Shown here: piece by piece, positions 40,883-54,735 of the stretch | Layout of the letters: each line of letters begins with the position of its first letter | Position numbering within the stretch: position 1 is the first letter of the stretch | Assembly (NCBI GenBank): GCA_018241505.1 | Contig: JAFEDS010000012.1 | Location: forward strand, 62,001-126,000 | From: Pseudomonadota bacterium | GTDB lineage: Bacteria > Pseudomonadota > Gammaproteobacteria > Steroidobacterales > Steroidobacteraceae | Length of the DNA: 64,000 nt | Reading direction: 5' to 3' | Program-made: the position numbers and the translations under genes | The notes under the pieces: generated by a model | Database searches by the model: none | The model's input: only the letters and a program-made list of their open reading frames with translations | What the model was told of the DNA's origin: nothing

Positions 40883-40960
40883 TCCGGCGGTTCGCACGTG
40901 GCGGCCGCCTGCGCATAAGATGTGCGAAAGACCCAAGACAAGGGCTGCAAGAGACATCTT

Positions 40961-42484
40961 ATGTCTATGGACCGGGGAGCGTTCGAGACGCTCATTACAC
41001 GCATGGAAGCGCTGGCCGCCGACAATCCGGGCGCATACCGGCGCCGGGTGTTTGGCATGGCTTTGCTCGGCTATGCCTACCTGTTGCTCGTGGCAGCAGG
41101 TCTGTTCGTATTGTGCGCAACCGCGCTCGCGAGCATCGTGTACCTGCAGGACATCGCCGTCAGGTTATTGTTGGTGACCGGCGGCCCGTTGCTGTTGGTG
41201 CTGCGCTCGATGTGGGTGAAGCTCGAGCCGCCCGCCGGGGAACGCCTGACCCGCGCCATGGTTCCCGAGCTCTTCGCGATGCTGGAAAGCCTGCGCACGC
41301 GCCTCGGAACGCCGCCCATTCACGAGGTTCTGCTCACTCCCGATTTCAATGCCGGTGTCATGCAGGTACCGCGGCTCGGGCTGTTGGGATGGCATCGCAG
41401 CTACCTGTTCATCGGCCTGCCGCTCATGAAGTCGCTGACGGTCGCGCAGTTCCAGGCGGTGTTGGCACATGAGTTGGGTCACCTGTCGGGCGGGCATGCG
41501 CGCGCGGGCAACTGGATCTATCGCCTGCGGTTGATCTGGCAGCGGCTCGAGGCGGCCTTCTCCCAGACATCCGACTGGGGAGCGCTGCCGATCCGCGCGT
41601 TCTTCAAGTGGTACATCCCGCGATTCAGTGCCACGTCGTTCCCGCTCGCGCGTGCCAACGAGTACGAAGCGGATACGGCCGCCATCAACCTGACATCCGC
41701 GCGCAGCGCGGCGCAGGCACTGACAGCCGTCAGTATTGTTGGAAGTTATCTCAGCGAGAAGTACTGGCCGAAGATTCATTCGGCCGCGCGCGAGTCGCCG
41801 CAACCGGCGTTCGCGCCCTACAGTGAGTTCATGGCCACGGCCATCCAGGATGTGCCGCCGCACGAGCTGCAGAGCTGGCAGGAGACCGCGCTCGCATCCC
41901 GCACCTCCTATAACGACACCCACCCCTCGCTCGCCGATCGCCTGAAGGCCATGGGAGCGGAGCCGGAATTCGCACCTCCCTCGAGCGGTGACAGCGCCGA
42001 AAAGCTGCTGGGCAGCGCGCGGGCGCGCCTGGAAAGCGCCTTCGATGCACAGTGGCGCGAGCGCGTCGCGGAGTCCTGGAAGCAGGTGCACGAGAACACG
42101 CGGACCCAGCGCCTGCGACTGAGCGAGCTGCGGGCGCAGGCAGCGCAGAGCGGCCTCGATGAAGTGAAGGCAGCGGAGCTGGCCGACCTCGAAGAGGATG
42201 TTGGCGAAGGGCCGGTGGCATCGTTGCGGATGCGACGGGCGTTGGTGGCAAAGTATCCGGATTCGGCGGCGGCCCGATTTTCACTGGGCCGGCAACTGTT
42301 GCGCTCGGGAGACGCCGACGGTGTCCCCTTGATGGAAACGCTCATTGAGAAAGAAACTCATGCATTCCAGGCTGGCGCCGAGCTGTTACGCGATTACTAT
42401 GTGCGCCGCCAGCAGCGCGAGCTGACTGTGTACTGGGAGCGGCGCCTTGCGGAAGCAGCGTCGCGTTGCGGCAAAACACATTAA
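40961..42484 (+). CDS. M48-family zinc metallopeptidase with C-terminal helical repeats
   Basis: Protein of about 507 residues. Two helices near residues 33-80 anchor it in the membrane. The zinc motif HELGH (170-174) and the third-ligand region NEYEADT (about 233-239) are intact, unlike the homologue at 52544. The remaining 230 residues are helical, TPR-like (RRALVAKYPDSAAARFSLGRQLLRSGD). M48 enzymes cleave or quality-control membrane proteins. The start is set at ATG 40961; the open frame extends to 40922, and ATG 40967 is another option. No strong ribosome binding site is seen. Confidence 0.85.
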   Translation: MSMDRGAFETLITRMEALAADNPGAYRRRVFGMALLGYAYLLLVAAGLFVLCATALASIVYLQDIAVRLLLVTGGPLLLVLRSMWVKLEPPAGERLTRAMVPELFAMLESLRTRLGTPPIHEVLLTPDFNAGVMQVPRLGLLGWHRSYLFIGLPLMKSLTVAQFQAVLAHELGHLSGGHARAGNWIYRLRLIWQRLEAAFSQTSDWGALPIRAFFKWYIPRFSATSFPLARANEYEADTAAINLTSARSAAQALTAVSIVGSYLSEKYWPKIHSAARESPQPAFAPYSEFMATAIQDVPPHELQSWQETALASRTSYNDTHPSLADRLKAMGAEPEFAPPSSGDSAEKLLGSARARLESAFDAQWRERVAESWKQVHENTRTQRLRLSELRAQAAQSGLDEVKAAELADLEEDVGEGPVASLRMRRALVAKYPDSAAARFSLGRQLLRSGDADGVPLMETLIEKETHAFQAGAELLRDYYVRRQQRELTVYWERRLAEAASRCGKTH

Positions 42485-42587: not shown

Positions 42588-42602
42588 GGGCACATTTATT
42601 GC
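42588..42602 (+). promoter_or_regulatory. Sigma-54-type promoter of the seven-gene surface-polymer operon
   Basis: GGGCAC-ATTTA-TTGC matches the -24/-12 consensus TGGCAC-N5-TTGC with only the first base different; the invariant GG and GC are 10 bases apart as required. Transcription would begin near 42614, leaving a 5' leader of about 60 bases. Confidence 0.5.
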
Positions 42603-42640
42603 GGCGTAAACCGTTAGCTCGAGCCAAAGAGTCTGGATAA

Positions 42641-42655
42641 CCGCTGCGGCAGCGG
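42641..42655 (+). promoter_or_regulatory. Hairpin next to the translation start of the radical SAM gene
   Basis: CCGCTG-CGG-CAGCGG forms a perfect 6-bp stem ending two bases before ATG 42658 and five before the AGGAG at 42661. It could modulate access to the ribosome binding site. Confidence 0.45.
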
Positions 42656-42675
42656 GGATGAGGAGCCGAAAAGAA

Positions 42676-44307
42676 GTGAATACCGAAGGCTCGCCCAGTG
42701 TGCTGCTGATCGGACCCTACGATCCACACTGCGGTGAATACACCTTTCTTGCGCCTCCGCTGGGAGTCTGGCGGCTGGTGGGCGTGCTGCAGGCAGCCGG
42801 CTTCGAAGCCAAGGTCTTCGATCCGAACTGTTGCCGTGAGCCACCGCAGCGCGCGCTCGAGCGTGAGCTGCTGGCCCACAATTGGGATGTCGTGGGCATC
42901 TCAACAACGGGGATGACTCTGCGCTACGACCTGGAGCTCGCGTACATTGCGCGGCGCATGGCGCCCCGGGCGCGCCTGGTTGCGGGCGGGATGGAGGCAA
43001 CGTTCCGGCCCGAGCTCATGTTTGAATTGGGCCCGTTTGATCTCGTGGTCCTCGGTGAGGGCGAGCACCCGCTGCTCGAGCTCGCGTCGCGCCTGCGCAA
43101 GGGCCTGCCGCTCGGCGGAATTACCGGCACAGCGGAGCGCAACGCGCAAGGCCAAGTAATCAAGATGCCGCAGACGGCGCTCACGCACGATCAGTTGCGT
43201 GATGCGATCTACAGCATTCCCTACGACAAGATGCCGTACAACGCCTACTGGGAGAGGCTGGAATCGGCGTATCGGGTCGGCGCGCTGCCGAGCAAGGCCG
43301 CCCGCGAAGCGCACCTGGCGGAGATCCGCTCGGTCCGCCTCATCACCCTGAACTATTGCCCGATGGGCTGCACGTTCTGCTCGTCAACCAACTTCCTGCA
43401 CGAAGCGCAGGGCAGCGTGGCCTCCATCGCGCGCCTGGAAGCGGATGAGTGCCTGCACATGATTGAACGGATCATGGTGGCGCATCCCAAGGCCCGCACC
43501 ATTATTTTCCAGGACGATATTTTCAGTTTCACGCGCGACCGCCGCATCCTGCCGCTGTGTGAAGGCATCGTTGCCGCGAAAAAGAGCGGCCGCATCCCGG
43601 CGCACCTGCAGTTCATCAGCACCAACCGCATCGACGCCATGACGCCCGAGCGCCTGTCCGCCATGCGGCAAGCCGGCTTCCGGGTCCTGGGTTTCGGCAT
43701 CGAAAGCTTCTCGCAACGCGTGCTCGGCGAATTCAACAAGGCACAGATCCATCGCCACATCGAGCCCATGCTCACCGCGGCGCTGGCGACCGGCGTGACT
43801 CCGTTTCTGGATCTGATCCTGAGCTCACCGGCCGCGCAGCTTGCCGATGTCGCGGAGACTTTACGCCAGGCCTACCGCTGGCTGCGGGCAGGCTGCGAGA
43901 TCGGGATGTATCCGTACGTCATCCCGTTTTCCGGGGCGCAATTCGCGAAGGATCCGAAGCTCGCGCCCTACACGCACTACACCGAGCGCCACGTAGCCGG
44001 TACACCGGTGGTCTGGCAACAAGCATCGAAGATACTACCCATGGACCCCGTCGTGACCGACGTCATTCTGCGAATGGAAAGCGCCTTCGAGGCCATTCTC
44101 GCGCCGCTGGAAAAATCAGTGGCCCATCTGCCGTCGCGCGTGCGCTCGCTGCTGTGGATCCTGAGCTCACTGTCGATCATGGCCGAGCACGGGCACTACA
44201 TTGCCGATGAGACCGAAGTTCGCGCCGAGTTGTATGCGCGGCTGCCAACGCTGCGGCCAGGCGAGCCGCAGGCATCGAGCTCCCGACTTGCAGTGGCCAG
44301 CGCATGA
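42676..44307 (+). CDS. B12-binding-domain radical SAM enzyme
   Basis: Class B radical SAM protein of 543 residues. Residues 9-145 are a cobalamin-binding-type Rossmann fold (VLLIGPYDPHCGEYTFLAPPLG ... DLVVLGEGEHPLLELA), with no His ligand motif, as usual for the class. The cluster motif is Cys228-x3-Cys232-x2-Cys235 in NYCPMGCTFCSS. These enzymes methylate unreactive carbons or rearrange substrates. I choose GTG 42676, ten bases after AGGAG; ATG 42658 in the same frame is the alternative. First gene of the operon; its stop overlaps the next ATG. Confidence 0.88.
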   Translation: MNTEGSPSVLLIGPYDPHCGEYTFLAPPLGVWRLVGVLQAAGFEAKVFDPNCCREPPQRALERELLAHNWDVVGISTTGMTLRYDLELAYIARRMAPRARLVAGGMEATFRPELMFELGPFDLVVLGEGEHPLLELASRLRKGLPLGGITGTAERNAQGQVIKMPQTALTHDQLRDAIYSIPYDKMPYNAYWERLESAYRVGALPSKAAREAHLAEIRSVRLITLNYCPMGCTFCSSTNFLHEAQGSVASIARLEADECLHMIERIMVAHPKARTIIFQDDIFSFTRDRRILPLCEGIVAAKKSGRIPAHLQFISTNRIDAMTPERLSAMRQAGFRVLGFGIESFSQRVLGEFNKAQIHRHIEPMLTAALATGVTPFLDLILSSPAAQLADVAETLRQAYRWLRAGCEIGMYPYVIPFSGAQFAKDPKLAPYTHYTERHVAGTPVVWQQASKILPMDPVVTDVILRMESAFEAILAPLEKSVAHLPSRVRSLLWILSSLSIMAEHGHYIADETEVRAELYARLPTLRPGEPQASSSRLAVASA

Positions 44308-45761
44308 AGGTTCTACGTTCATGGTCGTTTCTCGCGCCACTGGCCGTGTGCTCGCTGTTGGCCGGTTGGATCGTGTTGTCCGTGCTCAATGCCCGGGCAG
44401 TGGGCTTCTCGATCTTCCTGTTCGCGGTGGCCAACCTCATTGTCTACACTGATGCCATCGACTTCGCGCTGCGCCTGTACATGCGGCGCCGGCATACGGC
44501 CGCCGCCGGCGGCGTGGCGGAAAGCAGTCAGTTCGGCAATGTGTCAATCAACCTTGCCGCGATTCTGCCGCCGGACGCACGCCGGGTTGTGCCGGCCTCG
44601 CCCTTTGCAATCATCGCTTCCGTGTACAACCTCGAGGATCACTTCGATGAGTTCACCCGGAATTTCGGCGCCTATCGCGATCGCATCTGGCTGATCAGCG
44701 ATGGCTCGACGGACAACACCGTGCTGCGCCTGCGGCAGGCCGGCTGGCGTTGTTTCGATGATGGCGTCAACCGCCGCAAGCCCGGCGCGATCCGCCGCCT
44801 GCTGGAACGCATTCCCACTCACATCGAAACCGTGGTGGTGATTGATCCCGATGTGCGCATCCTGGGCCTCAACGAAGGCAGCAGCATCGATATCGAGCAG
44901 TTTGTCAGCGACTTCCAGCAATCGGGCGCCACCGCGGCCTGTCCGCGCATTGCGATCGAGCCGGATGGCTTCCTCGCCCGCTTCCAGTCTTTCGAGTACG
45001 CGCTCGCCTTTCGCATCGGCCGCGAAAGCCTCGGTGACTTCAGCATCACTTCGGGCGGCGTGTCGTTCTACAAGCGCAGCGCGCTGGTGCGCGCGTTGAA
45101 TGAGCACTCGCTGTCGGTGTACGCCGAAGACTTCGAGAATGCGGTGCTGCTGTTGAGTCAGGGCGGCCGCATCTATTACGACGGCCGCCTGGTTGTTGCT
45201 ACCGAAGGTCCGGGCTCATTGCAGCGTTGGTTCTCACAGCGCGTGGGTTGGTATCACGGCCTGCTCAAGGTCTACACCGAGCGCTTCAGCGAGATCATGC
45301 GGGTGGCGCGCCGCTCGCCGTTCGCTGCTTATCACTACATCATCTACGTGGGCGGCCTTTCGCTCGCCATGCATCTCGTGAAGATCGCGAGCGCGGCGCT
45401 TCTGCTCCTCAGCTTCCTCGCGGGCCTCGATGCTCTGCTGCTCGATGACCTCGTGCCCCAGGGCACTGTCACCAACCCCGCCTATTTCACCGCGGCCGTG
45501 ACCAGTTACCTGGCGCTCGGTGTCATCGCGCTGTTTACCGTGGTTCCCCCGCAGGAGCGCTCGTATTGCGCGCCGATCGTGCCACTGTATCTGTGCTACG
45601 CGATCGTCCACATCATTCCGATGTCGGTGGGATTCCTGAACTTCTTCTGGATCAAAATCTTCCGCAAGCGTATCTACCAGGATCACTACGAGAGTCCCAC
45701 CGATCCGACCCTGACCGGTAATCCGACGCTGACGGCTGACAAAGTGAGAGCGCTCGAATGA
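44304..45761 (+). CDS. Membrane-bound GT2 glycosyltransferase
   Basis: Protein of 485 residues. One to two helices (10-58) precede a cytosolic GT-A domain, followed by about four helices (345-460), the layout of polymer synthases. Catalytic landmarks are SDGSTDN (132-138), DPD (181-183), SGGVSFYKR, and AEDFE (Asp276 as likely base). The Q-x-x-R-W motif of processive enzymes is degenerate (QRVGW, 312-316), so chain polymerisation is likely but unproven. Donor sugar unknown. ATGA overlaps on both sides couple it to the radical SAM and methyltransferase genes. Confidence 0.88.
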   Translation: MKVLRSWSFLAPLAVCSLLAGWIVLSVLNARAVGFSIFLFAVANLIVYTDAIDFALRLYMRRRHTAAAGGVAESSQFGNVSINLAAILPPDARRVVPASPFAIIASVYNLEDHFDEFTRNFGAYRDRIWLISDGSTDNTVLRLRQAGWRCFDDGVNRRKPGAIRRLLERIPTHIETVVVIDPDVRILGLNEGSSIDIEQFVSDFQQSGATAACPRIAIEPDGFLARFQSFEYALAFRIGRESLGDFSITSGGVSFYKRSALVRALNEHSLSVYAEDFENAVLLLSQGGRIYYDGRLVVATEGPGSLQRWFSQRVGWYHGLLKVYTERFSEIMRVARRSPFAAYHYIIYVGGLSLAMHLVKIASAALLLLSFLAGLDALLLDDLVPQGTVTNPAYFTAAVTSYLALGVIALFTVVPPQERSYCAPIVPLYLCYAIVHIIPMSVGFLNFFWIKIFRKRIYQDHYESPTDPTLTGNPTLTADKVRALE

Positions 45762-46576
45762 CGGTCCGTGGAATACCTGCCCCGCAGCTCTATCAACCCA
45801 GCGCGTATTGGGAAGACCGAGCCCAGCGGTTTGCAGGCGAGGGCGCGGGACTTGCGGCAGTGTGTGCTTACGGCATGCCGGAGTTCTACAACCGCGCCAT
45901 TCAACTGGAGCAGCGCCTGGCGCTGCGCCCGTGGCTGGACGTGAAGCCCGGCATGCGCGTGCTGGATGTTGGTTGCGGGGTGGGGCGCTGGAGCCGGATG
46001 CTGGCAGCAAAGGGCGCGCACGTTACGGGCGTGGATCTCAGTCCCACGATGATCGCTCAAGCGCAACAGCGAGCCGCGGCGCAAGGCGTTTCGGATCGAT
46101 GCCAGTTTCGCGTACAGGACCTGTCGAGCCTCGATGTCGGTGAAAAGTTCGACGTCGTGTTGGGAGTAACGGTGCTGCAGCACATCCTGGATCCGGCTCT
46201 GCTGCGCGACGCCGTGCGTCGTATGACCGACCACCTGGCGCCCGGGGGACGAATGGTTCTGCTCGAGGCGGCCCCAACGAGTATCATTGAACGTTGCGAT
46301 TCCACGGTCTTCCGGGCACGTCAGCGGAATGTGTACCTGGACCTGTTTCGCCAATGCGATCTGGAGCTGCGAGCCCTGACAGGAGTCGATCCGGCGCCCA
46401 CGCGGACGCGGCTGTTGCCGTATCTGCGTAAGTTGCCGCGCGCAGCCTCCATGGGCCTTTTAATGCTTTCGACGGCACTGTCTTTGCCCGTTGACGCGCT
46501 GTTTGGTCGCCGCGCCGTCAACCAGTCCTGGCATGCAGTGTTCGTGCTCGAGCCAAAAAAAGTGGGGGGAAGCTGA
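45758..46576 (+). CDS. SAM-dependent methyltransferase in the polymer operon
   Basis: Class I methyltransferase of 272 residues with motif I VLDVGCGVGRWSRMLA, motif II TGVDLSPTMI and FDVVLGVTVLQHI. Near the C terminus is one hydrophobic stretch (AASMGLLMLSTALSLPVDAL) that could touch the membrane. Given its position between GT2 and the beta-helix protein, it probably O-methylates the sugar or lipid intermediate. It overlaps GT2 by four bases and ends three bases before the next gene. Confidence 0.85.
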   Translation: MTVRGIPAPQLYQPSAYWEDRAQRFAGEGAGLAAVCAYGMPEFYNRAIQLEQRLALRPWLDVKPGMRVLDVGCGVGRWSRMLAAKGAHVTGVDLSPTMIAQAQQRAAAQGVSDRCQFRVQDLSSLDVGEKFDVVLGVTVLQHILDPALLRDAVRRMTDHLAPGGRMVLLEAAPTSIIERCDSTVFRARQRNVYLDLFRQCDLELRALTGVDPAPTRTRLLPYLRKLPRAASMGLLMLSTALSLPVDALFGRRAVNQSWHAVFVLEPKKVGGS

Positions 46577-46579
46577 ATC

Positions 46580-47836
46580 ATGGCGCTCAAACGTCGTTCC
46601 ATCATAGCCATCGGCGTCTTTGCACTGCTGGCGGTCGTGGTCGCGGCCGGTCACTGGTATGAAACCAAGCGGGTGCAGCCAGGCAACACGACGGAAAAAG
46701 AAGTGACGGTGCACGTGACGAACGCGGGCGATCGCGGCCCCGGCACGCTGCGCGAGGCGCTCTTCCTGGTCGCGGGTGCCACCGGCCCCCGGACCATTTC
46801 AATCGAGATTCCCTCCATCAAGCTCGAGACCGCGCTGCCGGCGCTGGTGAGCGGGCGCGGTGTGAAGGTCGTCGGCCAGGCAACCGGGACGGTGATTGAC
46901 GCGCAGTCCCTGAACGCGGGCCCCGTATTCGATGTGTCCGGACCGAACACCGCCATTGAGCAAGTGACGGTCAGCAAGTGCCCCGCCGCGGCCATTCTGG
47001 TGCGTTCCATTCACTTCAGGCTGTCGGCCTCGACCATCGAGTCCTGCGACGTGGGCGTCGAAGTGGCCGAGAACGCGAGCGACTCGCTGTTGGAGCGCAA
47101 CCACTTCATCAAGAATCGGGTCGGCATCCGCTTCGCCGCCTCCGGTCACAACACCGCCGTGGCCAACAACGAGTTCAAGGAAAGCAAGGACGCCGGCCTG
47201 TGGGCGGTGCGCAGCGCGCCCGACTCCCACGACGATGTCATAGGCATTCACGACAACAAGTTCACCGAGGACACCACCGGCATCGTGGCCGGCAACATCC
47301 CGGTGTTGGTTGAGCGCAATGACTTCATCAACGCGCACGAAGCGGATGTGCATGTAGTGGGTGCCGGCGCGGTGATCCGCGGCAACCGCATCAATGGCGG
47401 CGCCTCCATGGGTATCGTTGCCGAGAACGCGAGCGGCGCCACCATCGATGACAACGAGTTGGAAGGGCTCACCGCCTACGGTGTCATGGTCCGCAGCTCA
47501 TCCAACACGACGGTGCGCTCGAACCGGCTGCACAACTGCGGCTACGGTCTGGCCTTCGTACTGGGCGACAAGGCCAAGGTCAGCACCGCGGTTGACAACA
47601 CCATCATTGAGGCGAAGTTTAACGGCATCGATGTCATCGGCGACTCGCCCATCCTGCGCCGCAACCAGGTCCTGCGCGCGCATGCGTATGCCCTGCACGT
47701 CGAGGATTTCCAGCCACCGAGCGGGCAGAAAGTGCAGTCCCAGCCATTCCTGGACAACAACAACTTCGGCAACAGTCCCGTCAGCAACAAGGGCAGCGTG
47801 AGCGTTGCCTCGCAGCAGCAGCAGTCCCTGCAGTAA
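46580..47836 (+). CDS. Periplasmic right-handed parallel beta-helix protein (NosD-like)
   Basis: Protein of 418 residues with an N-terminal membrane anchor (residues 8-24) and a mature part made of parallel beta-helix coils. Repeats of the N-x-F/I ... G-I/V type run from 95 to 390 (for example NHFIKNRVGIRF, NNEFKESKDAGLW, NRINGGASMGIV, NRLHNCGYGLAF). This fold occurs in polysaccharide lyases and C5-epimerases such as AlgG, and in NosD. A Gln-rich tail ends the protein. I infer an enzyme or chaperone acting on the exported chain; no catalytic triad could be assigned. Confidence 0.82.
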   Translation: MALKRRSIIAIGVFALLAVVVAAGHWYETKRVQPGNTTEKEVTVHVTNAGDRGPGTLREALFLVAGATGPRTISIEIPSIKLETALPALVSGRGVKVVGQATGTVIDAQSLNAGPVFDVSGPNTAIEQVTVSKCPAAAILVRSIHFRLSASTIESCDVGVEVAENASDSLLERNHFIKNRVGIRFAASGHNTAVANNEFKESKDAGLWAVRSAPDSHDDVIGIHDNKFTEDTTGIVAGNIPVLVERNDFINAHEADVHVVGAGAVIRGNRINGGASMGIVAENASGATIDDNELEGLTAYGVMVRSSSNTTVRSNRLHNCGYGLAFVLGDKAKVSTAVDNTIIEAKFNGIDVIGDSPILRRNQVLRAHAYALHVEDFQPPSGQKVQSQPFLDNNNFGNSPVSNKGSVSVASQQQQSLQ

Positions 47837-47848
47837 CGTGGATTCGAA

Positions 47849-49258
47849 GTGAGGCCGAACGCCGAAAGCACGCAGCTCATTCCCCGCCCGGTCTGGGAGA
47901 ATCCGCGCGTTCACTTGCTCGACGATATCTGGTTGATGACCATTGTCGCCATTCTCGTGGCGACCGGTGTCCCGTGGTTTGCCAGCGGTTTCGAGGTGAA
48001 TGTCGGCATGGCGAGCTGGGGCCTGCTGGCCCTGGGCGGCATCCACGTGGCATTCACCATGTTGGCAGCGCCCGCGCGCCTGCACGGCAAGTGGCGCGAT
48101 CGCGCGCTGACCTTTCTCGACATCCTCGGCGTCGTCCTGGTCGCCTTCATCTGGCAGCACGTCGGCGGACTGCAGAACCCGATGTTCCTCACTGTGTTCG
48201 CTCTGCCGGTCGTGGGCGCGATTTTCCTGTCGCGCTGGCACCCCTATCTGATTGCCGTGGTTGCGGTCGTCGCGGTGGGCATTGTCGCGCTCAGCCAGGC
48301 TCCTGAACTGCGCTGGTATGCCAGCGGCCTCATGGGCACGGACAAATGGCTCACCTGGTTGTTCGGCAATCAGAGCGCAGTGCCGCAGCCCTCGTTCTCG
48401 GGCTTCTTCGCGCCGTCGAACTACCTGATCGTGCTGTTGGAGGTATTTACCATCCTGTTGTTTGCCTGCGCGGTGGCGGCAGAGTATGTCGGCACGATTT
48501 TCGAGCGCCTGAATGCGCACATTGTGATGGCGCGTACCGAAGCCGAGCGCGGCCAGGAAATGTGGGCCGGCCTCATTGAGCGCCTGCCATTGCCCGCATT
48601 GCTGATTGATCCGGACTCCATGCGCATCGTCGCCTGCAGCGAGTTCGCGACCATCTACCTGCGCGCCGGCGACCTGGCGATCGAGGGGCGCCTGCTGTTC
48701 GAGGCGCTGAAGTTTTCCTATCCCGACATCGTGCAGGAGCTGGTTGTTGGCTCGGACGGTGGCGCCCCTGCAACGGTCATCCGCGTAGGCGAGCAGTTGC
48801 GGGTCACCCAGATCCGGGTCCTCCACGTGGCTCACAAGGGCCGGCGGCTCGCGCTCCTGACCATTGAGGATGCGACTGAAGTCTTCTGTCTGAAGGCGGC
48901 GCTGGATACCGCCGAGTACGCGGCCTTCGTGATTGATGCCCGTGGCCTGGTTCTTGCTTTCAACAAGCCGGCCGGCGGCTTGTTTGGAGGCGCGGAAGTG
49001 GGTGCCGACGCCGAGACGCTGTTGGCTCAGCCCGAGGCTCCGCCGCGTTGGTGGGAGCCGGGATTGACCGGTAGAAGAAAAATGCACATTGAAATTGGAC
49101 CCAGGATTTATCAGGTAACGAGCTCCGCCATTTCATTGGCGGGTGAGGAGGAGCGCATTTTCACCGTAACTTTTCTGCCGGTCGCCAGAGCCGGTACGGC
49201 CGATCCATTTTCGACCGGTTCGACGGTGGTCACCCAGACGCTGGGGCAGATGCGATGA
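47849..49258 (+). CDS. RegB/PrrB-like six-helix sensor with PAS domains, no kinase
   Basis: Protein of 469 residues starting at GTG 47849. Six helices (28-48, 56-75, 88-104, 112-129, 131-148, about 195-215) resemble the membrane sensor of RegB/PrrB. The loop GGLQNPM (106-112) nearly equals the ubiquinone-binding G-G-x-x-N-P-F heptad of that kinase. Two PAS-like modules follow (about 245-345 and 350-445), but there is no His box or ATPase domain. It must signal by protein contact, perhaps to the GGDEF/EAL protein two genes downstream. The final codon overlaps the next ATG. Confidence 0.75.
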   Translation: MRPNAESTQLIPRPVWENPRVHLLDDIWLMTIVAILVATGVPWFASGFEVNVGMASWGLLALGGIHVAFTMLAAPARLHGKWRDRALTFLDILGVVLVAFIWQHVGGLQNPMFLTVFALPVVGAIFLSRWHPYLIAVVAVVAVGIVALSQAPELRWYASGLMGTDKWLTWLFGNQSAVPQPSFSGFFAPSNYLIVLLEVFTILLFACAVAAEYVGTIFERLNAHIVMARTEAERGQEMWAGLIERLPLPALLIDPDSMRIVACSEFATIYLRAGDLAIEGRLLFEALKFSYPDIVQELVVGSDGGAPATVIRVGEQLRVTQIRVLHVAHKGRRLALLTIEDATEVFCLKAALDTAEYAAFVIDARGLVLAFNKPAGGLFGGAEVGADAETLLAQPEAPPRWWEPGLTGRRKMHIEIGPRIYQVTSSAISLAGEEERIFTVTFLPVARAGTADPFSTGSTVVTQTLGQMR

Positions 49259-50094
49259 GGCGCCGATTCGCAGTTGCAACCGCGGTAGCGGGCCTGTGCG
49301 CACCGGTGTGCGCGTTGCACGCCGCCGCGCCCTCGGGGGTGGATGACCGGATCGCAATCGGCTTGCAGGGTGAAAGCCTCACCAACACCAGCGGCGGCGG
49401 CGGCGGCTCGCTGACCTGGCTGCACAACTACAGCGCGGATGCCCTGGCCGGCGTGGGCGTTGAGCACCAGGTGCTGGCCAACTCGCATTGGACGTTCGGT
49501 TCCGTGAACGGCGCCTACTCCATGGGCCAGGGGGATCAGCGTTACAGCATTTACGGCGAAGCGCACGAGGGTGGCGGCAACAGCGGCGACCGCTCCTTCA
49601 ATTATCACATTGAAGCCGTGGGCCTGGTCGGCACCTATTTCCATCGGCTCTCGGTGCAGTTGGAAGATCGCCAGTTCTTTGTGGACACCGTGTCCGGCAA
49701 CCTGCCGAAGCTCGGTGTGTCGTACCTGTGGGATCCGCATTTCCAGACCTCCGTGTCGTATGCCTATTCGGTGGGATCCAACCTGGGTACGCGCCTGTTG
49801 GCGGGCAAGATCGACATTTTCGAGCCCGGCGTGAACTGGCTGATGGGTTTTTCAGTCGGTCAGGCGACCGCCGCGGTGCTGACACCCGGTGCGCACATCG
49901 AAGGTCAGCCGACCTCGATTCCAGGCCTGCGGGTGAAGGAAGGTTATGTGGGGGCCACGGTTCCGCTGCCGAGCTGGCGCAGCGAAATCAGCCTCATTCT
50001 CGACTACCAGAAGCTGTACAGCCCGTTTGTGGACAGCAAGCGCTTCCAGGGAAATCTGAACTACGTCTTTCACATAGGACATCACGGTAAGTAA
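49255..50094 (+). CDS. Outer-membrane beta-barrel protein of the polymer operon
   Basis: Exported protein of 279 residues (signal peptide to about residue 24, HAAA). The mature part is a series of amphipathic strands (YSADALAGVGVEHQVL, WTFGSVNGAYSMG, RYSIYGEAHEG, VSYAYSVGSNLGTRLL, EISLILDYQKLY), typical of a barrel of 10-14 strands. It does not end with Phe but with FHIGHHGK. I propose an export pore or surface anchor; no TPR part is present, unlike PgaA or BcsC. ATGA overlap with the sensor gene, two-base gap to the GGDEF/EAL gene. Confidence 0.7.
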   Translation: MRRRFAVATAVAGLCAPVCALHAAAPSGVDDRIAIGLQGESLTNTSGGGGGSLTWLHNYSADALAGVGVEHQVLANSHWTFGSVNGAYSMGQGDQRYSIYGEAHEGGGNSGDRSFNYHIEAVGLVGTYFHRLSVQLEDRQFFVDTVSGNLPKLGVSYLWDPHFQTSVSYAYSVGSNLGTRLLAGKIDIFEPGVNWLMGFSVGQATAAVLTPGAHIEGQPTSIPGLRVKEGYVGATVPLPSWRSEISLILDYQKLYSPFVDSKRFQGNLNYVFHIGHHGK

Positions 50095-50096
50095 TA

Positions 50097-52538
50097 GTGG
50101 CGGCATTCCTGAAAAGAAGGCGCGACTTCGGCTGGATACCCACAGTTGTGGTGCTGGCCGTTGTGCTCATCGCGGGCTCGCGCCTCATGTACCTGAGCGT
50201 GCAGCACCATGCTGCCACTGCACGCGCCGAGGCCACCAAGATCCTGGGTGCCTATGCGAGCAAAATCGATCCCGAGCTGCAGAAGCTGGGAGTGCTCGCA
50301 TTCCGGCAGGCCGCGGCGGCGGGCAAGGCGCTGGCCAATACCAACACGTTCACGTCGCTCGATTCCGTGCCGCTGCAATCCAACACCTTCTGGATGACCA
50401 ACGAGGACCGGGTGTCGAGCTCGCTGCCCGCGGATGCGAATGCCGCGGCCGGCATTGCCAGCGAGTGGGATTCAGCCGAGTCGGCGCGTCCTGTGCCGGG
50501 CGCAACCGTGTTGGGACCCCTGCGATTGGGAAGCCAGTGGCTCGTCGCGGCCCGCGTGCCGGTGGTGCCGGCCATTGCCGGGGTGGAGTCGCCGAGCCGG
50601 GGTTGGGCTGTATCGTATGGTGACCTCGATGAGATGATTTCGGGTGCGCACCTTGCGCGCCTCACCGATGCGGGCTACGACTTCGAGCTGTCCCAGGTCG
50701 AGCCGCGCAGTGCCCGGACGCGCATTTTCGTGAGCTCGAGCTCCGAACCGCTGGCGGATGCGGTCGCTATCAAGCTGCGCTTGCCGAACGGCTTTCAACC
50801 GGCGACCGCCGGCAGCTACCTGCAGGTCGCCATTCTGCCGCGCACCGGCTGGTATCCGGCCACGGAGTTGGCTTCGGACATCGGCTTGCTGGCCTTTCTC
50901 GCGTGGCTGCTGGCCTTCGGTACCCACGACCTGAGCCATGCCCTGCAGCGTTCGCGATCCGCGTTGACCGCGGCGCGCGCCCGTCTGCGCAATATCAACA
51001 AACAACTGGCTACCGAGATGCAACAGCGTCTCAGCCTGCAGGAAACATTCGATCACGCCCGTTTCCATGACGCCTTTACCGGGTTGCCCAACCGGCGGTA
51101 TTTCATGGACCAGTTGGACAGGGCACTGCGCGATGTGCGCACGAAACGGCGCCAGCGCGTTGCGGTGATCATCGTGGATATCTCGCGATTCAAGCTCGTC
51201 AACGACATGCTCGGGCATACCGCCGGTGACGAGTTGATGGTGCAGGCCGCGCGCCGTTTCGAGAAATCAACATCGGCGGTTGAAGGCGTACTGGCCCGTT
51301 GGGGCGGTGACCAGTTTGCCGTGCTGATTCTCGATGTCGCCTCCACCGACTCGGCCCTGGGAGTCGCGGGCGTTCTGCAGGACGAGCTGCGTTCGCCTTT
51401 CGAGCTGCGCCGTCACAAGCTGGTCGTGACCGCCACCATTGGAGTAACGACCGTCGATTCAGGCCAGCAGCGCGCGGAGGATGTGGTCCGCGAGGCTGAC
51501 ATCGCATTGTCGGTCGCCAAGCGGCAGGAAAACCAGAAAATCGTCCTGTACTCGGCCAACATGGCCGGCCAGGCCGCGTCCCTGGTCAGCCTGGAAGCCG
51601 ATCTGCACGTGGCGCTGGAAAAGCACGAGCTGCGGCTGTTGTTCCAACCGGTGGTGGACTTGAGAACCTATCGCATGGTGGGTGCCGAGGCGCTGCTGCG
51701 CTGGCGTCACCCGGTCGAGAGCGTGTTGGCGCCCGACAAGTTCATCCGGATCGCCGAGGAAGCGGGCCTCATGGTGCCGATCACCCGTTGGATCATCCTG
51801 AGGGTGATCAAGCTCGCGGGTGAGTGGCTGCGGCGCCTGCCCGCCAACCAGAAATTCTTTGTCAGTGTGAACATGTCGCCCACCGCGCTGCGGGACCCGG
51901 GGATGGTGGAGTACATCGGCTCGCTGTTGCGCGAGACGCAGCTACCTCCGTCCGTGCTCAAATTCGAGCTGACGGAAGCCGCTCTCATCAGCAATGTGGG
52001 AGCCGCGCGCGAGACATTGGAGCGCCTGCACGCCATGGGCATAGGGCTCATGCTCGATGACTTCGGGACAGGTTATTCCTCGCTCAGTTACCTGCAGTTG
52101 TTTCCGTTTGATTTTGTCAAAATCGACCGGCCGTTCGTCAACACGGGCCCGCAGGACAACGCCAACACCGGCATGATGGCCGCGATGGTGCAAATGGCCG
52201 GCAGCCTGAATCTCACGGCGATTGCCGAGATCATCGAGACCGAGGCCGCGGCGCGCGCCCTGCAGGAAATGGGCTGCGAGTATGGTCAGGGTTACTACTT
52301 CAGCGAGCCGATCGAAGCCGAGCTCGCCCTGCAGCGGTTGCGAACCCAGCATCCGTTCCAACCCACCGTGAATACGGGTACGTTCGCTCCTGTTGCTTCC
52401 ACGGCTGCGACCGCGGCAACCGCAGCTTCTCCTGATGAGACAGTGGCCGTGAAGCCTCTGGACGTCGACGACTCGCCGACCATCATGATTCCCGCTACTT
52501 CACTCGGCTTTCCGCCGCCGGACGACGATTCGCGTTAA
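50097..52538 (+). CDS. Membrane GGDEF-EAL c-di-GMP protein with degenerate GGDQF site
   Basis: Protein of 813 residues, GTG start. Helices at 14-32 and about 258-277 enclose a periplasmic sensor domain. The GGDEF domain (320-485) has GGDQF at 403-407, so the catalytic Glu is lost and cyclase activity is unlikely. The EAL domain (500-750) looks complete: EALLRW (531-536), ELTE, DDFGTGYSSL (654-663), KIDRPF (675-680) and AEIIETEA. It should act as a phosphodiesterase, perhaps GTP-activated. A Ser/Thr/Pro-rich tail follows. Last gene of the operon; it would set local c-di-GMP for polymer export. Confidence 0.92.
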   Translation: MAAFLKRRRDFGWIPTVVVLAVVLIAGSRLMYLSVQHHAATARAEATKILGAYASKIDPELQKLGVLAFRQAAAAGKALANTNTFTSLDSVPLQSNTFWMTNEDRVSSSLPADANAAAGIASEWDSAESARPVPGATVLGPLRLGSQWLVAARVPVVPAIAGVESPSRGWAVSYGDLDEMISGAHLARLTDAGYDFELSQVEPRSARTRIFVSSSSEPLADAVAIKLRLPNGFQPATAGSYLQVAILPRTGWYPATELASDIGLLAFLAWLLAFGTHDLSHALQRSRSALTAARARLRNINKQLATEMQQRLSLQETFDHARFHDAFTGLPNRRYFMDQLDRALRDVRTKRRQRVAVIIVDISRFKLVNDMLGHTAGDELMVQAARRFEKSTSAVEGVLARWGGDQFAVLILDVASTDSALGVAGVLQDELRSPFELRRHKLVVTATIGVTTVDSGQQRAEDVVREADIALSVAKRQENQKIVLYSANMAGQAASLVSLEADLHVALEKHELRLLFQPVVDLRTYRMVGAEALLRWRHPVESVLAPDKFIRIAEEAGLMVPITRWIILRVIKLAGEWLRRLPANQKFFVSVNMSPTALRDPGMVEYIGSLLRETQLPPSVLKFELTEAALISNVGAARETLERLHAMGIGLMLDDFGTGYSSLSYLQLFPFDFVKIDRPFVNTGPQDNANTGMMAAMVQMAGSLNLTAIAEIIETEAAARALQEMGCEYGQGYYFSEPIEAELALQRLRTQHPFQPTVNTGTFAPVASTAATAATAASPDETVAVKPLDVDDSPTIMIPATSLGFPPPDDDSR

Positions 52539-52543
52539 CGCCG

Positions 52544-53977
52544 TCAATGGTGGCCCAGCGCTCGGAGCAACAAGTGGATGATGGCGAATGGAATCCCACC
52601 GAACAACATCGTGAGGGCCAGGGATAGCCAGACGAGCATCGGCAACAGGATGCCCACGCACACCACGAGGATGGCCAGGAGCGGCCCGATGATGAGCCAG
52701 AGTTTGAGTGGCATCTTCGCGGCCGGCGCGCGCGTTATATGGGCGCCCAGGGTGCCCAGCGCGCGCAGCCGCCGCTCGATCGAGGGAAACATCGGGACGG
52801 CGCTTCCTCCGAACACGCCGCTCTGCCGTCCCGCGTGGTCCGTTACCGACATGTGAGAAACCCACGGAGCCAGTGGCACGCTGCGCTGCTTTGTCATCTG
52901 CTCCAAGGCGCCGGCCAGCGTGTCAGGATCCCGTGTGAGGCGCACAGCGGTCGCATCGGCCATGTACTTTCGTTGTCGCCATGCGAACGACAACAGCGGA
53001 CCCAGTATGAACAGATTGACGAGCGCCCCCAGAAAGCCGGTTATTACGAGCGGCCCCGCGAGCGGCAGCCACAAAGACGCCCGGATTTTTTGCCACCGAG
53101 TCGGATTCGCCGGCTCCGGCTCTTTCTTCCCCTCATCGGCGAAGGGATTCGCGAGCTGCAGGACCAACTTGCGCGCACTGCGCGCGGTCGGTACGAGCGT
53201 CGCAACCAGGATCTGACGCAGATTGCGCCGCGCGTGTTTCTGGGACACCAGGCTCCCCAGCAGCGCGATCAATGAGAACAGGTTCATGCTCAGCGCAGCC
53301 CGGACTCCTATCTTCATGTCGCCATCGGCAATCGCCGCCACCAAGTTGGCCGCCACTCCTTCCATCTGCGCGCGATTCAACAGGCTCAACAGCCCTTGCG
53401 AGATAACGACGGTCGACTGTCGCTCGTCCGTACCGAACGCAACCGCGTCCACGATTGGACTGTCCACAATGAACACGCGTGGGGGTGGCAGTGCGGCAGC
53501 GATGGCCATCTCACTCACAACATTGCCAAATCGCTGCTCATCCAGCGCCGTCGGATCCGGCGCGCGGGCAGCCAGCTCGCCCGAATCGAATGACATGGAC
53601 AGGCGCAGTACCCGCCGCAGCGCATTCAGAACCAACCCCATCCACAGCAGGCCGGGCAGTGCCGCCATGAAGCTGAACGCAATCCAGCTCTCGACGTTCA
53701 TTTTCTCGGGCGCATTCAGCGCCCGGTCGAGCGCGTGACCGAGGCTCGGGACGAGATTCGGCGCGGGGACTACGAGGTTGAGGACATCGAGCGCGAGTGC
53801 CAACGCCGCGTAGAAGAGAGGCGACATGAGCACGGCGACAACCAACGCCACAACGACATTGACCGCCCGGCTGACAAAGGTAACCCGCCAGGCCGCGCGC
53901 CGGTGACGCGCAATCGCGGCAAAGAAGCTTTCCCGTTCAGCGGGCGTCCATGCGGTCCAACCCGTGTCTGTGGTCAC
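52544..53977 (-). CDS. M48-family protein without zinc ligands (pseudo-peptidase)
   Basis: Membrane protein of 477 residues with four to six helices, starting at GTG 53977 that overlaps the stop of the ABC permease (GTGA). The sequence aligns with HtpX-like M48 proteins ([30 protein letters not shown] ... MEGV). Where the zinc motif HExxH should stand it reads NLVAA (211-215), and the later glutamate position in REYLAD-type motifs is Lys ([12 protein letters not shown]). The three metal ligands are therefore gone. Some M48-like proteins have turned into structural partners; translational coupling to an ABC transporter suggests such a role. Confidence 0.8.
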
Positions 53978-54735
53978 GCCTTGATTTTGTACCCGGTGCG
54001 GAAGATGGCCCAAACAGCCGCAAAGCACGCCAGCAGGAATACCATGACCATGGAGAAACTGACAACAATGTTGACGTCCGAGATGCCGTAGAAGCTCCAG
54101 CGGAAGCCGCTGATGAGGTACACGATCGGGTTGAACAGGGCGACCTTCTGCCAGAACGGCGGCAGCATGGTGATGGAGTAGAAGCTGCCGCCCAGGAAAG
54201 TGAGTGGTGTTACCACCATCAGGGGAATGATCTGCAGTTTCTCCCACCCGTCAGCCCAGATTCCAATGAGGAAGCCGAAGAAGCTGAAGGTGATGGCCGT
54301 CAACACCAGGGAGGCCACCATCCACACCGGGTGGGCGATATGGAAGTCCACAAACAGCCGCGCCGTAATGAGAATGATGGTGCCCAGGATCACGGATTTG
54401 GTTGCGGCCGCACCTATGTAGCCCGCCACAATTTCCCCTGTTGCAATGGGCGCGGACAGGATTTCGTAAATGGTGCCGGAAAACTTCGGCATGTAGATTC
54501 CGAAGGAGGCGTTGGACACGCTCTCCGTGAGAATCGAGAGCATGATGAGCCCGGGGACAATGAAGGCACCGTAACTGACGCCATCGATATGTGCCATGCG
54601 CGAACCGATGGCGGCACCAAACACAATGAAGTACAGGGATGTTGAGAGAACCGGGGAGAGGATGCTCTGGTAGAGGGTCCGCCAGGTGCGATGCATCTCA
54701 AAGAAATAGATGGCGCGAATGGCGTAGAGGTTCAT
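53974..54735 (-). CDS. ABC-2-type transporter permease
   Basis: Permease of 253 residues with six helices, typical of the ABC-2 family ([37 protein letters not shown] ... [32 protein letters not shown]). It pairs with the ATPase encoded directly upstream, sharing ATGA. Such exporters move lipids, polysaccharides or drugs. The pseudo-peptidase gene is coupled to its 3' end. Confidence 0.92.

What the first reader, a model, noticed from the sequence alone, without database searches (positions are those of the whole stretch)
42588..52538. Seven-gene operon for an apparently undescribed c-di-GMP- and redox-linked surface polymer
Seen: seven plus-strand genes joined by four-base overlaps or gaps under 13 bases: radical SAM/B12, GT2 with helices, SAM methyltransferase, parallel beta-helix, RegB-like sensor without kinase, outer-membrane barrel, GGDEF-EAL. 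Known: GT2, beta-helix epimerase or lyase, barrel and c-di-GMP protein are the parts of alginate- and cellulose-like export systems. Inference: a new exopolysaccharide or glycolipid pathway whose product is methylated (both SAM methyltransferase and a C-methylating radical SAM candidate) and controlled by c-di-GMP and quinone state. It lacks BcsB/C, PgaA, PelA/B and Alg44 counterparts.
Basis: partly seen in the sequence, partly recalled or inferred. Interest (0 to 1): 0.78.

Follow-up and report, generated by a model that had tools for sequence, protein, structure and literature searches.

The report
Conserved c-di-GMP-linked surface-glycan operon
Seven neighbouring genes in a soil bacterium form a single, conserved unit that probably builds and exports an unusual sugar-based surface molecule in connection with the second messenger c-di-GMP; my paper searches found no description of it.

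Summary
Seven plus-strand genes (42658-52538) are joined by three 4-base overlaps and gaps of 2-12 bases. They are a real unit: 20 of 44 examined loci carry all seven in the same order, 13 more agree up to a contig end, and 11 are variants. In the family Steroidobacteraceae the radical SAM gene is in 32 of 217 genomes and the GT2 gene in 33, the same genomes but for one contig break. Elsewhere it is rare (4 of 396 in an acidobacterial phylum sample; of 398 sampled Proteobacteria only the own genome). The GT2 has a hyaluronan/cellulose-synthase-like fold, but the arginine of QxxRW is glycine in 44 of 44 sequences. The barrel is a predicted 14-strand CymA/OmpG-like pore. GGDEF is degenerate in 28 of 28 homologues scored, EAL largely intact. 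Gene 5 resembles RegB's membrane half; in one acidobacterial locus it carries an intact GGDEF. Seven loci add a deacetylase-like and an acetyltransferase gene, hinting at an amino sugar. Best reading: a c-di-GMP-linked envelope-glycan pathway; polymer or glycolipid is undecided.

The parts
42658..44307 (+). Gene 1: cobalamin-binding radical SAM enzyme (549 aa), CPMGCTFC [4Fe-4S] motif, N-terminal GPYDPHCGEYTFLAPPLG signature
   Evidence: B12-binding 4.4e-17, Radical_SAM 1.3e-7; 22 NCBIfam families, none near its cut-off; best conserved of the genes compared across phyla, 60-65% identity in the rows from other phyla; CxxxCxxC in 36 of 37 rows, the 37th gapped there
44304..45761 (+). Gene 2: membrane GT2 (485 aa) of hyaluronan/cellulose-synthase-like fold; SDGSTD, DPD, AED; QRVGW in place of QxxRW
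45758..46576 (+). Gene 3: class I SAM-dependent methyltransferase (272 aa), soluble
   Evidence: Methyltransf_25 1.5e-24; best NCBIfam CpaM 87.8 bits against a cut-off of 180; SAM motif LDVGCGVG or close variants in 40 of 40; no hydrophobic segment
46580..47836 (+). Gene 4: right-handed beta-helix protein (418 aa) with one N-terminal hydrophobic anchor; DRGPGTLREA-type cap
   Evidence: Beta_helix 2.3e-27, NosD 3.5e-20; NosD in PDB 5.2e-5; anchor 7-25; residue conservation
47849..49258 (+). Gene 5: six-TM RegB-like protein plus PAS-like cytoplasmic part, no kinase (469 aa); GGLQNPM between the third and fourth segments
   Evidence: ActS_PrrB_HisK 1.3e-3 over residues 32-164, 4 of 7 members match at E 0.05 or better; six hydrophobic segments; homologue in L072 ends in an intact GGDEF domain, 3e-33
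49255..50094 (+). Gene 6: outer-membrane beta-barrel, 14 predicted strands (279 aa), N-terminal hydrophobic signal-like segment
50097..52538 (+). Gene 7: GGDEF-EAL protein (813 aa) with two N-terminal membrane segments around a periplasmic region; GGDQF degenerate, EAL intact; C-terminal DDSPTxxxP
   Evidence: GGDEF 2.7e-39, EAL 2.1e-71; motifs over 28 homologues; hydrophobic segments 17-35 and 258-276

Best explanation
The seven genes are one pathway that makes and exports an envelope glycan (chain or oligosaccharide) in connection with c-di-GMP. Proposed working: (1) in the cytosol the B12 radical SAM enzyme and the methyltransferase modify the sugar donor, the acceptor or the growing glycan; (2) the membrane GT2 assembles it and passes it through its own transmembrane bundle, as hyaluronan and cellulose synthases do; (3) the anchored beta-helix protein binds, guides or perhaps modifies the product in the periplasm; (4) the 14-strand barrel lets it out; (5) gene 7 reads c-di-GMP (or GTP at its dead GGDEF) and probably hydrolyses it, and gene 5 adds an inner-membrane, possibly quinone- or redox-like input, with a cyclase half still attached in one acidobacterial homologue. 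In loci with a deacetylase-like and an acetyltransferase gene the product probably contains an amino sugar. Shown here: gene order and co-occurrence, domain content, folds by prediction, motif conservation. Inferred: product class, order of steps, direction of regulation.
For: Same seven genes in the same order in 20 of 44 loci, 13 more cut by contig ends but consistent. Radical SAM in 32 and GT2 in 33 of 217 family genomes, the one difference (G005) being a contig that starts 28 bases before the GT2. GT2 fold nearest hyaluronan synthases, PcManGT, BcsA and chitin synthase; all 40 members scanned match the poly-GlcNAc synthase PgaC model, weakly. DUF2334 deacetylase-like plus GNAT genes in 7 of 44 loci, in three different arrangements. 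Barrel model of CymA/OmpG/TodX type. Each locus that extends far enough has a c-di-GMP gene: GGDEF-EAL (30 of 44), a GGDEF fused to gene 5 (L072), or a response-regulator-EAL protein (L069); the other 12 are cut by a contig end.
Against: The QxxRW arginine is Gly in 44 of 44, whereas it is essential in HAS1, BcsA and CesA8 (passages of PMC11750622, and PMC10592267). Whole-chain Foldseek TM-scores to HAS are modest (0.43-0.56). PcManGT, recalled as an archaeal N-glycan enzyme adding a single mannose, scores as high as HAS. No TPR scaffold and no PilZ among the seven. The radical SAM protein is better conserved across phyla than the GT2 (60-65% against 36-46%), which may mean that the core chemistry is not polymerisation. 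No product is known.
Confidence: 0.5

Rival explanations
1. A glycolipid pathway: the GT2 is not processive and moves one or a few sugars to a lipid acceptor; the radical SAM enzyme and methyltransferase modify that lipid; the beta-helix and barrel deliver it to the outer leaflet.
For: QxxRW lost in 44 of 44; PcManGT ties for the best fold match; curated neighbours of the radical SAM enzyme include lipid-related families (hopanoid HpnJ and HpnR, lipid TIGR04072); TodX and FadL, named transporters of toluene and long-chain fatty acids, are among the best barrel matches.
Against: The GT2 model has further C-terminal membrane helices as HAS does, and 372 residues align to HAS against 329 to PcManGT; OmpG- and CymA-type pores fit the barrel as well; none of the curated lipid families is near its cut-off.
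Confidence: 0.3
2. A Nod-factor-like system: an N-modified chitin-type oligosaccharide made by GT2 (NodC-like), deacetylase (NodB-like), acyltransferase (NodA-like) and methyltransferase (NodS-like).
For: NodC model matches 10 of 40 GT2 members weakly; the methyltransferase matches NodS (1.7e-11); deacetylase-like and GNAT genes in 7 of 44 loci.
Against: NodC 19.4 bits against a cut-off of 550; no match to that deacetylase in the window's genome at 1e-10; the GNAT proteins scanned matched acetyltransferase models and no NodA model was reported.
Confidence: 0.08
3. A regulatory or secondary-metabolite cluster in which the GT2 glycosylates a small molecule, with no surface glycan.
For: The radical SAM enzyme's relatives by PDB sequence are mostly antibiotic-biosynthesis enzymes (apramycin oxidoreductase 4, OxsB, TokK).
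Against: A barrel, a periplasmic beta-helix and a membrane-embedded synthase fold sit in the same gene run.
Confidence: 0.07

Closest known systems
Synthase-dependent exopolysaccharide secretion (cellulose Bcs, PNAG Pga, alginate Alg)
   Same: Membrane GT2 of synthase fold, periplasmic protein, outer-membrane barrel, c-di-GMP protein.
   Different: No PilZ, BcsB or TPR domain among the seven and no BcsB match in the genome; QxxRW arginine replaced; a B12 radical SAM enzyme and a methyltransferase belong to the set.
Hyaluronan synthase (CvHAS, XlHAS1)
   Same: Best Foldseek match (7sp8, 1.6e-11); N- and C-terminal membrane helices around a GT-A domain.
   Different: 12-15% identity; TM-scores 0.43-0.56; R of QxxRW is Gly; sequence match to PDB only E 0.007.
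Poly-beta-1,6-GlcNAc synthase PgaC/IcaA
   Same: The one curated family matched by 40 of 40 GT2 members at E 0.01 (the XrtP-associated glycosyltransferase matches 38); ica/pga also pair a GT2 with a deacetylase (recalled).
   Different: 34.4 bits against a cut-off of 422.
RegB/PrrB/ActS redox sensor kinases
   Same: Six membrane segments and a G[GAS]xxNP stretch between the third and fourth; weak profile match there.
   Different: No kinase; the F of GGXXNPF absent in 34 of 34; GGDEF as output in L072.
CymA / OmpG / TodX outer-membrane channels
   Different: No sequence family match and no credible PDB sequence match.
NosD-type beta-helix proteins
   Same: NosD Pfam 3.5e-20; PDB NosD 5.2e-5.
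   Different: NosD equivalog cut-off not met (41.9 of 300); none of the other six genes is a nos-type gene by Pfam/NCBIfam.

Membership tests
Synthase-dependent exopolysaccharide system | Membrane GT2 with synthase fold | tested here: met
Synthase-dependent exopolysaccharide system | Processive signature D, DxD, (T)ED, Q(Q/R)xRW | tested here: not met
   SDGSTD-type, DPD and AED kept; QxxRW is QRxGW in 44 of 44
Synthase-dependent exopolysaccharide system | c-di-GMP receptor acting on the synthase (PilZ or analogue) | tested here: inconclusive
   No PilZ among the seven; gene 7 could serve, with degenerate GGDEF and intact EAL
Synthase-dependent exopolysaccharide system | TPR-bearing periplasmic scaffold in the operon | tested here: not met
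   No TPR model matched any of the seven or the two flanking genes
Synthase-dependent exopolysaccharide system | Outer-membrane barrel in the operon | tested here: met
   14-strand barrel model; recognised by HMM in 33 of 44 loci
Carbohydrate-active beta-helix enzyme (AlgG/AlgE epimerase, pectate lyase) | Invariant catalytic acid/base in the helix groove | tested here: inconclusive
   None at 94% or more between residues 91 and 394 in 37 sequences; D107, D118, E282, E293, R316, R360 and others at 80-92%; no structure made
RegB/PrrB/ActS | Six TM plus GGXXNPF heptapeptide | tested here: inconclusive
   Six segments; full heptapeptide in 0 of 34, G[GAS]xxNP in 30 of 34
RegB/PrrB/ActS | Histidine kinase part | tested here: not met
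   No kinase domain matched
Diguanylate cyclase (gene 7) | Intact GGDEF | tested here: not met
   0 of 28 homologues scored
EAL phosphodiesterase (gene 7) | EAL catalytic residues | tested here: met
   E of ExL and DD of LDDFG in 28 of 28; second Glu (AExxE) in 27 of 28, L064 being the exception
Cobalamin radical SAM C-methylase | B12 domain and CxxxCxxC | tested here: met
Cobalamin radical SAM C-methylase | Methyl transfer to carbon | not testable with these tools
   Curated families nearby are mixed, the non-methylase BchE among them (PMC13142503 abstract)
NodABC(S)-type lipochitooligosaccharide pathway | NodC-level GT2 | tested here: not met
   19.4 bits against a cut-off of 550

The most novel reading that the evidence does not exclude
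A previously undescribed class of c-di-GMP-controlled envelope-glycan machine, spread over several soil phyla, in which a synthase-fold GT2 without the canonical QxxRW arginine works with a cobalamin radical SAM enzyme to build a chemically novel (C-modified or cross-linked) surface glycan or glycolipid, and in which a RegB-like membrane domain is wired to c-di-GMP instead of to a kinase.
Probability: 0.35. Interest if true: 0.82.

Novelty: new variant of a known kind. Interest (0 to 1): 0.62.

Why it matters
If right, it adds a c-di-GMP-linked envelope-glycan pathway outside the well-known Bcs/Pga/Alg/Pel sets, with a cobalamin radical SAM enzyme as its best-conserved part and a synthase that departs from the signature found essential in tested processive synthases. 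It is experimentally reachable: records named as strains (Steroidobacter gossypii S1-65, Peristeroidobacter soli JW-3, P. agariperforans KA5-B, S. agaridevorans SA29-B) carry the complete operon (loci L047, L048, L052, L054).

Tried and rejected
Viral contigs: the GT2 search found 18 pattern hits, none a relative. PDB sequence search with the first GT2 alignment found nothing at 1e-3, with the deeper one HAS1 at 0.007; the barrel profile found only an implausible hit at E 1.5. Beta-helix as an epimerase or lyase: first I meant to reject it because no acid or base reaches 94% conservation; a recheck at 80% showed several at 80-92%, and in the seven closer sequences D225, E245, R305, D339 and D376 are invariant, so it stays open. 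AlgE-like export: AlgE appears in Foldseek at low TM (query-normalised 0.39-0.44 in the 50 rows shown); its absence from the 50 rows of the second look proves nothing. Bcs elsewhere in the genome: no BcsB match in the own genome (the control rang in 2 of 14 genomes, E. coli and B. subtilis); PilZ, Pga, Pel and Alg genes elsewhere were not searched. Contamination: in the radical SAM tree 27 gammaproteobacterial rows form a clade (100/97); in the GT2 tree 32 rows do (100/100), including L065 (labelled ANGP1) and excluding L069 and L070 (labelled Gammaproteobacteria), so most copies from other phyla are not recent contaminants; deep placement is unresolved and long branches were flagged. Order-level GT2 search: 12 of 296 genomes at 1e-40, of which 11 in the own family and one (G101) a partial match over 184 positions that I did not follow. 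Only two structure jobs existed: the barrel (7 sequences) and the GT2 (40); the beta-helix, radical SAM enzyme and gene 5 were not folded. Some genes counted as present are split over two frames (gene 5 of L049, barrel of L063, deacetylase of L057), perhaps assembly errors. Paper searches on this system: 0 papers; one search found 92 papers (20 listed) and one search found 8,693 (10 listed); from the listed titles and abstract starts none concerned it, the unlisted ones were not seen. No bioRxiv library and no supplements were available.
Full report
What is in the window. The finding is real: seven plus-strand genes from 42658 to 52538 with overlaps 44304-44307, 45758-45761 and 49255-49258 and gaps of 3, 12 and 2 bases. 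The stated start 42588 is not an in-frame start codon; ATG 42658 is the first possible one. Domains: B12-binding/radical SAM; GT2 (Glyco_trans_2_3); class I methyltransferase; right-handed beta-helix; a protein with no domain above cut-off whose membrane half matches ActS/PrrB/RegB at 1.3e-3; a protein with no family; GGDEF-EAL. Hydropathy gives five segments in the GT2, one anchor in the beta-helix protein, six in gene 5, a signal-like segment in the barrel protein and, in gene 7, two segments around a roughly 220-residue region plus one inside the GGDEF domain.

Where it occurs. The genome is 7.88 Mb in 46 contigs. Named relatives place it with Steroidobacter and Peristeroidobacter and soil/peat gammaproteobacterial MAGs. 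In a first sample 10 of 60 relatives had the GT2, all in the own genus. In the family, the radical SAM gene is in 32 of 217 genomes and the GT2 in 33 of 217, both at E 1e-60; the extra genome, G005, has a contig that begins 28 bases before the GT2. In an order sample the GT2 was in 12 of 296 at E 1e-40, 11 of them in the own family and one a partial match. In a phylum sample of 398 only the own genome has the radical SAM gene; in a sample of 396 from the phylum of an acidobacterial locus, 4 do. The genome-contig scan used only two peptide patterns of the GT2 and is not exhaustive; it returned 42 loci, among them MAGs labelled Acidobacteria, Thermoanaerobaculia, Gemmatimonadetes and Rhodothermaceae.

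Synteny. I scored 44 loci (the 42, one further acidobacterial locus L087, and the window) with HMMs of the seven genes and of two accessory genes. They were found through the GT2 or, for L087, the radical SAM gene, so presence of that gene is by construction. 20 of 44 have all seven in the window's order (L043 and L051 run into the contig end inside the last gene). 13 are cut by a contig end and agree as far as they go. The other 11: L074 has the order with an unrecognised 271-residue ORF in the barrel slot; L072 lacks the GGDEF-EAL gene; L063, L064 and L066 have the GT2 after the GGDEF-EAL gene, and L061 and L065 show the tail of the same arrangement; L057 shows GT2, accessory pair, radical SAM; L073 and L087 carry the accessory pair inside the operon; L069 has GT2-beta-helix-gene 5 with a response-regulator-EAL gene upstream, its genome's radical SAM gene lying on another contig (G016). 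The accessory pair, a DUF2334 deacetylase-like and a GNAT protein, is in 7 of 44 loci: L057, L061, L063, L064, L065, L073, L087. DUF2334 keeps DD and HxxxH stretches that resemble polysaccharide deacetylases (likeness recalled). That gene was not found in the own genome; 4 of 16 genomes tested have it.

The radical SAM enzyme. In alignment A8 the rows from other phyla are 60-65% identical to the window, against 36-46% for the GT2 in A7, leaving aside L065, labelled ANGP1 but nested in the gammaproteobacterial clade at 54%. It matches no curated family near its cut-off; nearest are ApyD, MJ_1487, BchE, TIGR04072 and HpnJ, and in PDB the apramycin oxidoreductase 4, OxsB, TokK and an unnamed radical SAM protein. 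Cobalamin radical SAM enzymes are mostly methylases but include BchE and other non-methylases (abstract of PMC13142503; abstract start of PMC13331322). C-methylation is therefore possible, not shown.

Signalling. Of 30 loci with a GGDEF-EAL gene, 28 were complete enough to score: GGDEF is intact in none, the EAL glutamate and LDDFG are in all 28, the later glutamate in 27. That fits a phosphodiesterase or receptor, not a cyclase. Gene 5 keeps G[GAS]xxNP in 30 of 34 sequences but GGXXNPF, the RegB quinone motif as described in PMC8191878 (passages), in none. In L072, the locus without the GGDEF-EAL gene, gene 5 ends in a GGDEF domain with RLGGDEF. This exchange is the best evidence that gene 5 belongs to c-di-GMP signalling; it is one locus.

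Conclusion. An operon for an envelope glycan or glycolipid, linked to c-di-GMP, conserved as a unit and patchily spread. Glycan pathway (0.5) and glycolipid (0.3) remain in play. Searches returned no paper; two showed none on it among the 20 of 92 and 10 of 8,693 listed. These searches cover only the open-licence PubMed Central library.

Noticed in passing
window 52400-52538 and relatives: Gene 7 ends in a short conserved motif around DDSPTxxxP: SPT is present in 23 of 29 rows, not in L064, L072, L073, L074, L075 or L087. Gene 5 begins with a similar-looking stretch, DSTQLLPxPxW, in its closer homologues. A docking or phosphorylation site is possible.
   Followed up: partly
window 40922-42484 (+) and 52544-54247 (-): The operon is flanked on both sides by M48-family peptidase genes. 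The clustering of neighbours did not show them as shared by four or more loci.
   Followed up: partly
L065: A contig labelled Terrabacteria group ANGP1 carries a copy nested inside the gammaproteobacterial variant clade: perhaps a binning error or a recent transfer.
   Followed up: no
L070: A contig labelled Gammaproteobacteria (isolate Ww582) groups in the GT2 tree, at modest support, with an acidobacterial and a Gemmatimonadetes copy, the latter from the same Ww isolate series: mis-binning or transfer.
   Followed up: no
G016:C420:4127-5122: The deacetylase-like gene of this genome contains one in-frame TGA and lies on another contig than its divergent GT2-beta-helix-gene 5 cluster.
   Followed up: no
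L072 16100-20528: Downstream of the acidobacterial operon lie a LuxR-type response regulator and, by eye only, an HD-domain-like protein and a sensor-like protein, which may replace the missing GGDEF-EAL gene.
   Followed up: partly
L049, L063, L057: Gene 5 of L049, the barrel of L063 and the deacetylase of L057 are each split over two reading frames: assembly errors or decay.
   Followed up: no
G000: The own assembly (7.88 Mb, 5.67% contamination) is larger than the other genomes of its genus in the first sample (1.8-6.9 Mb).
   Followed up: no
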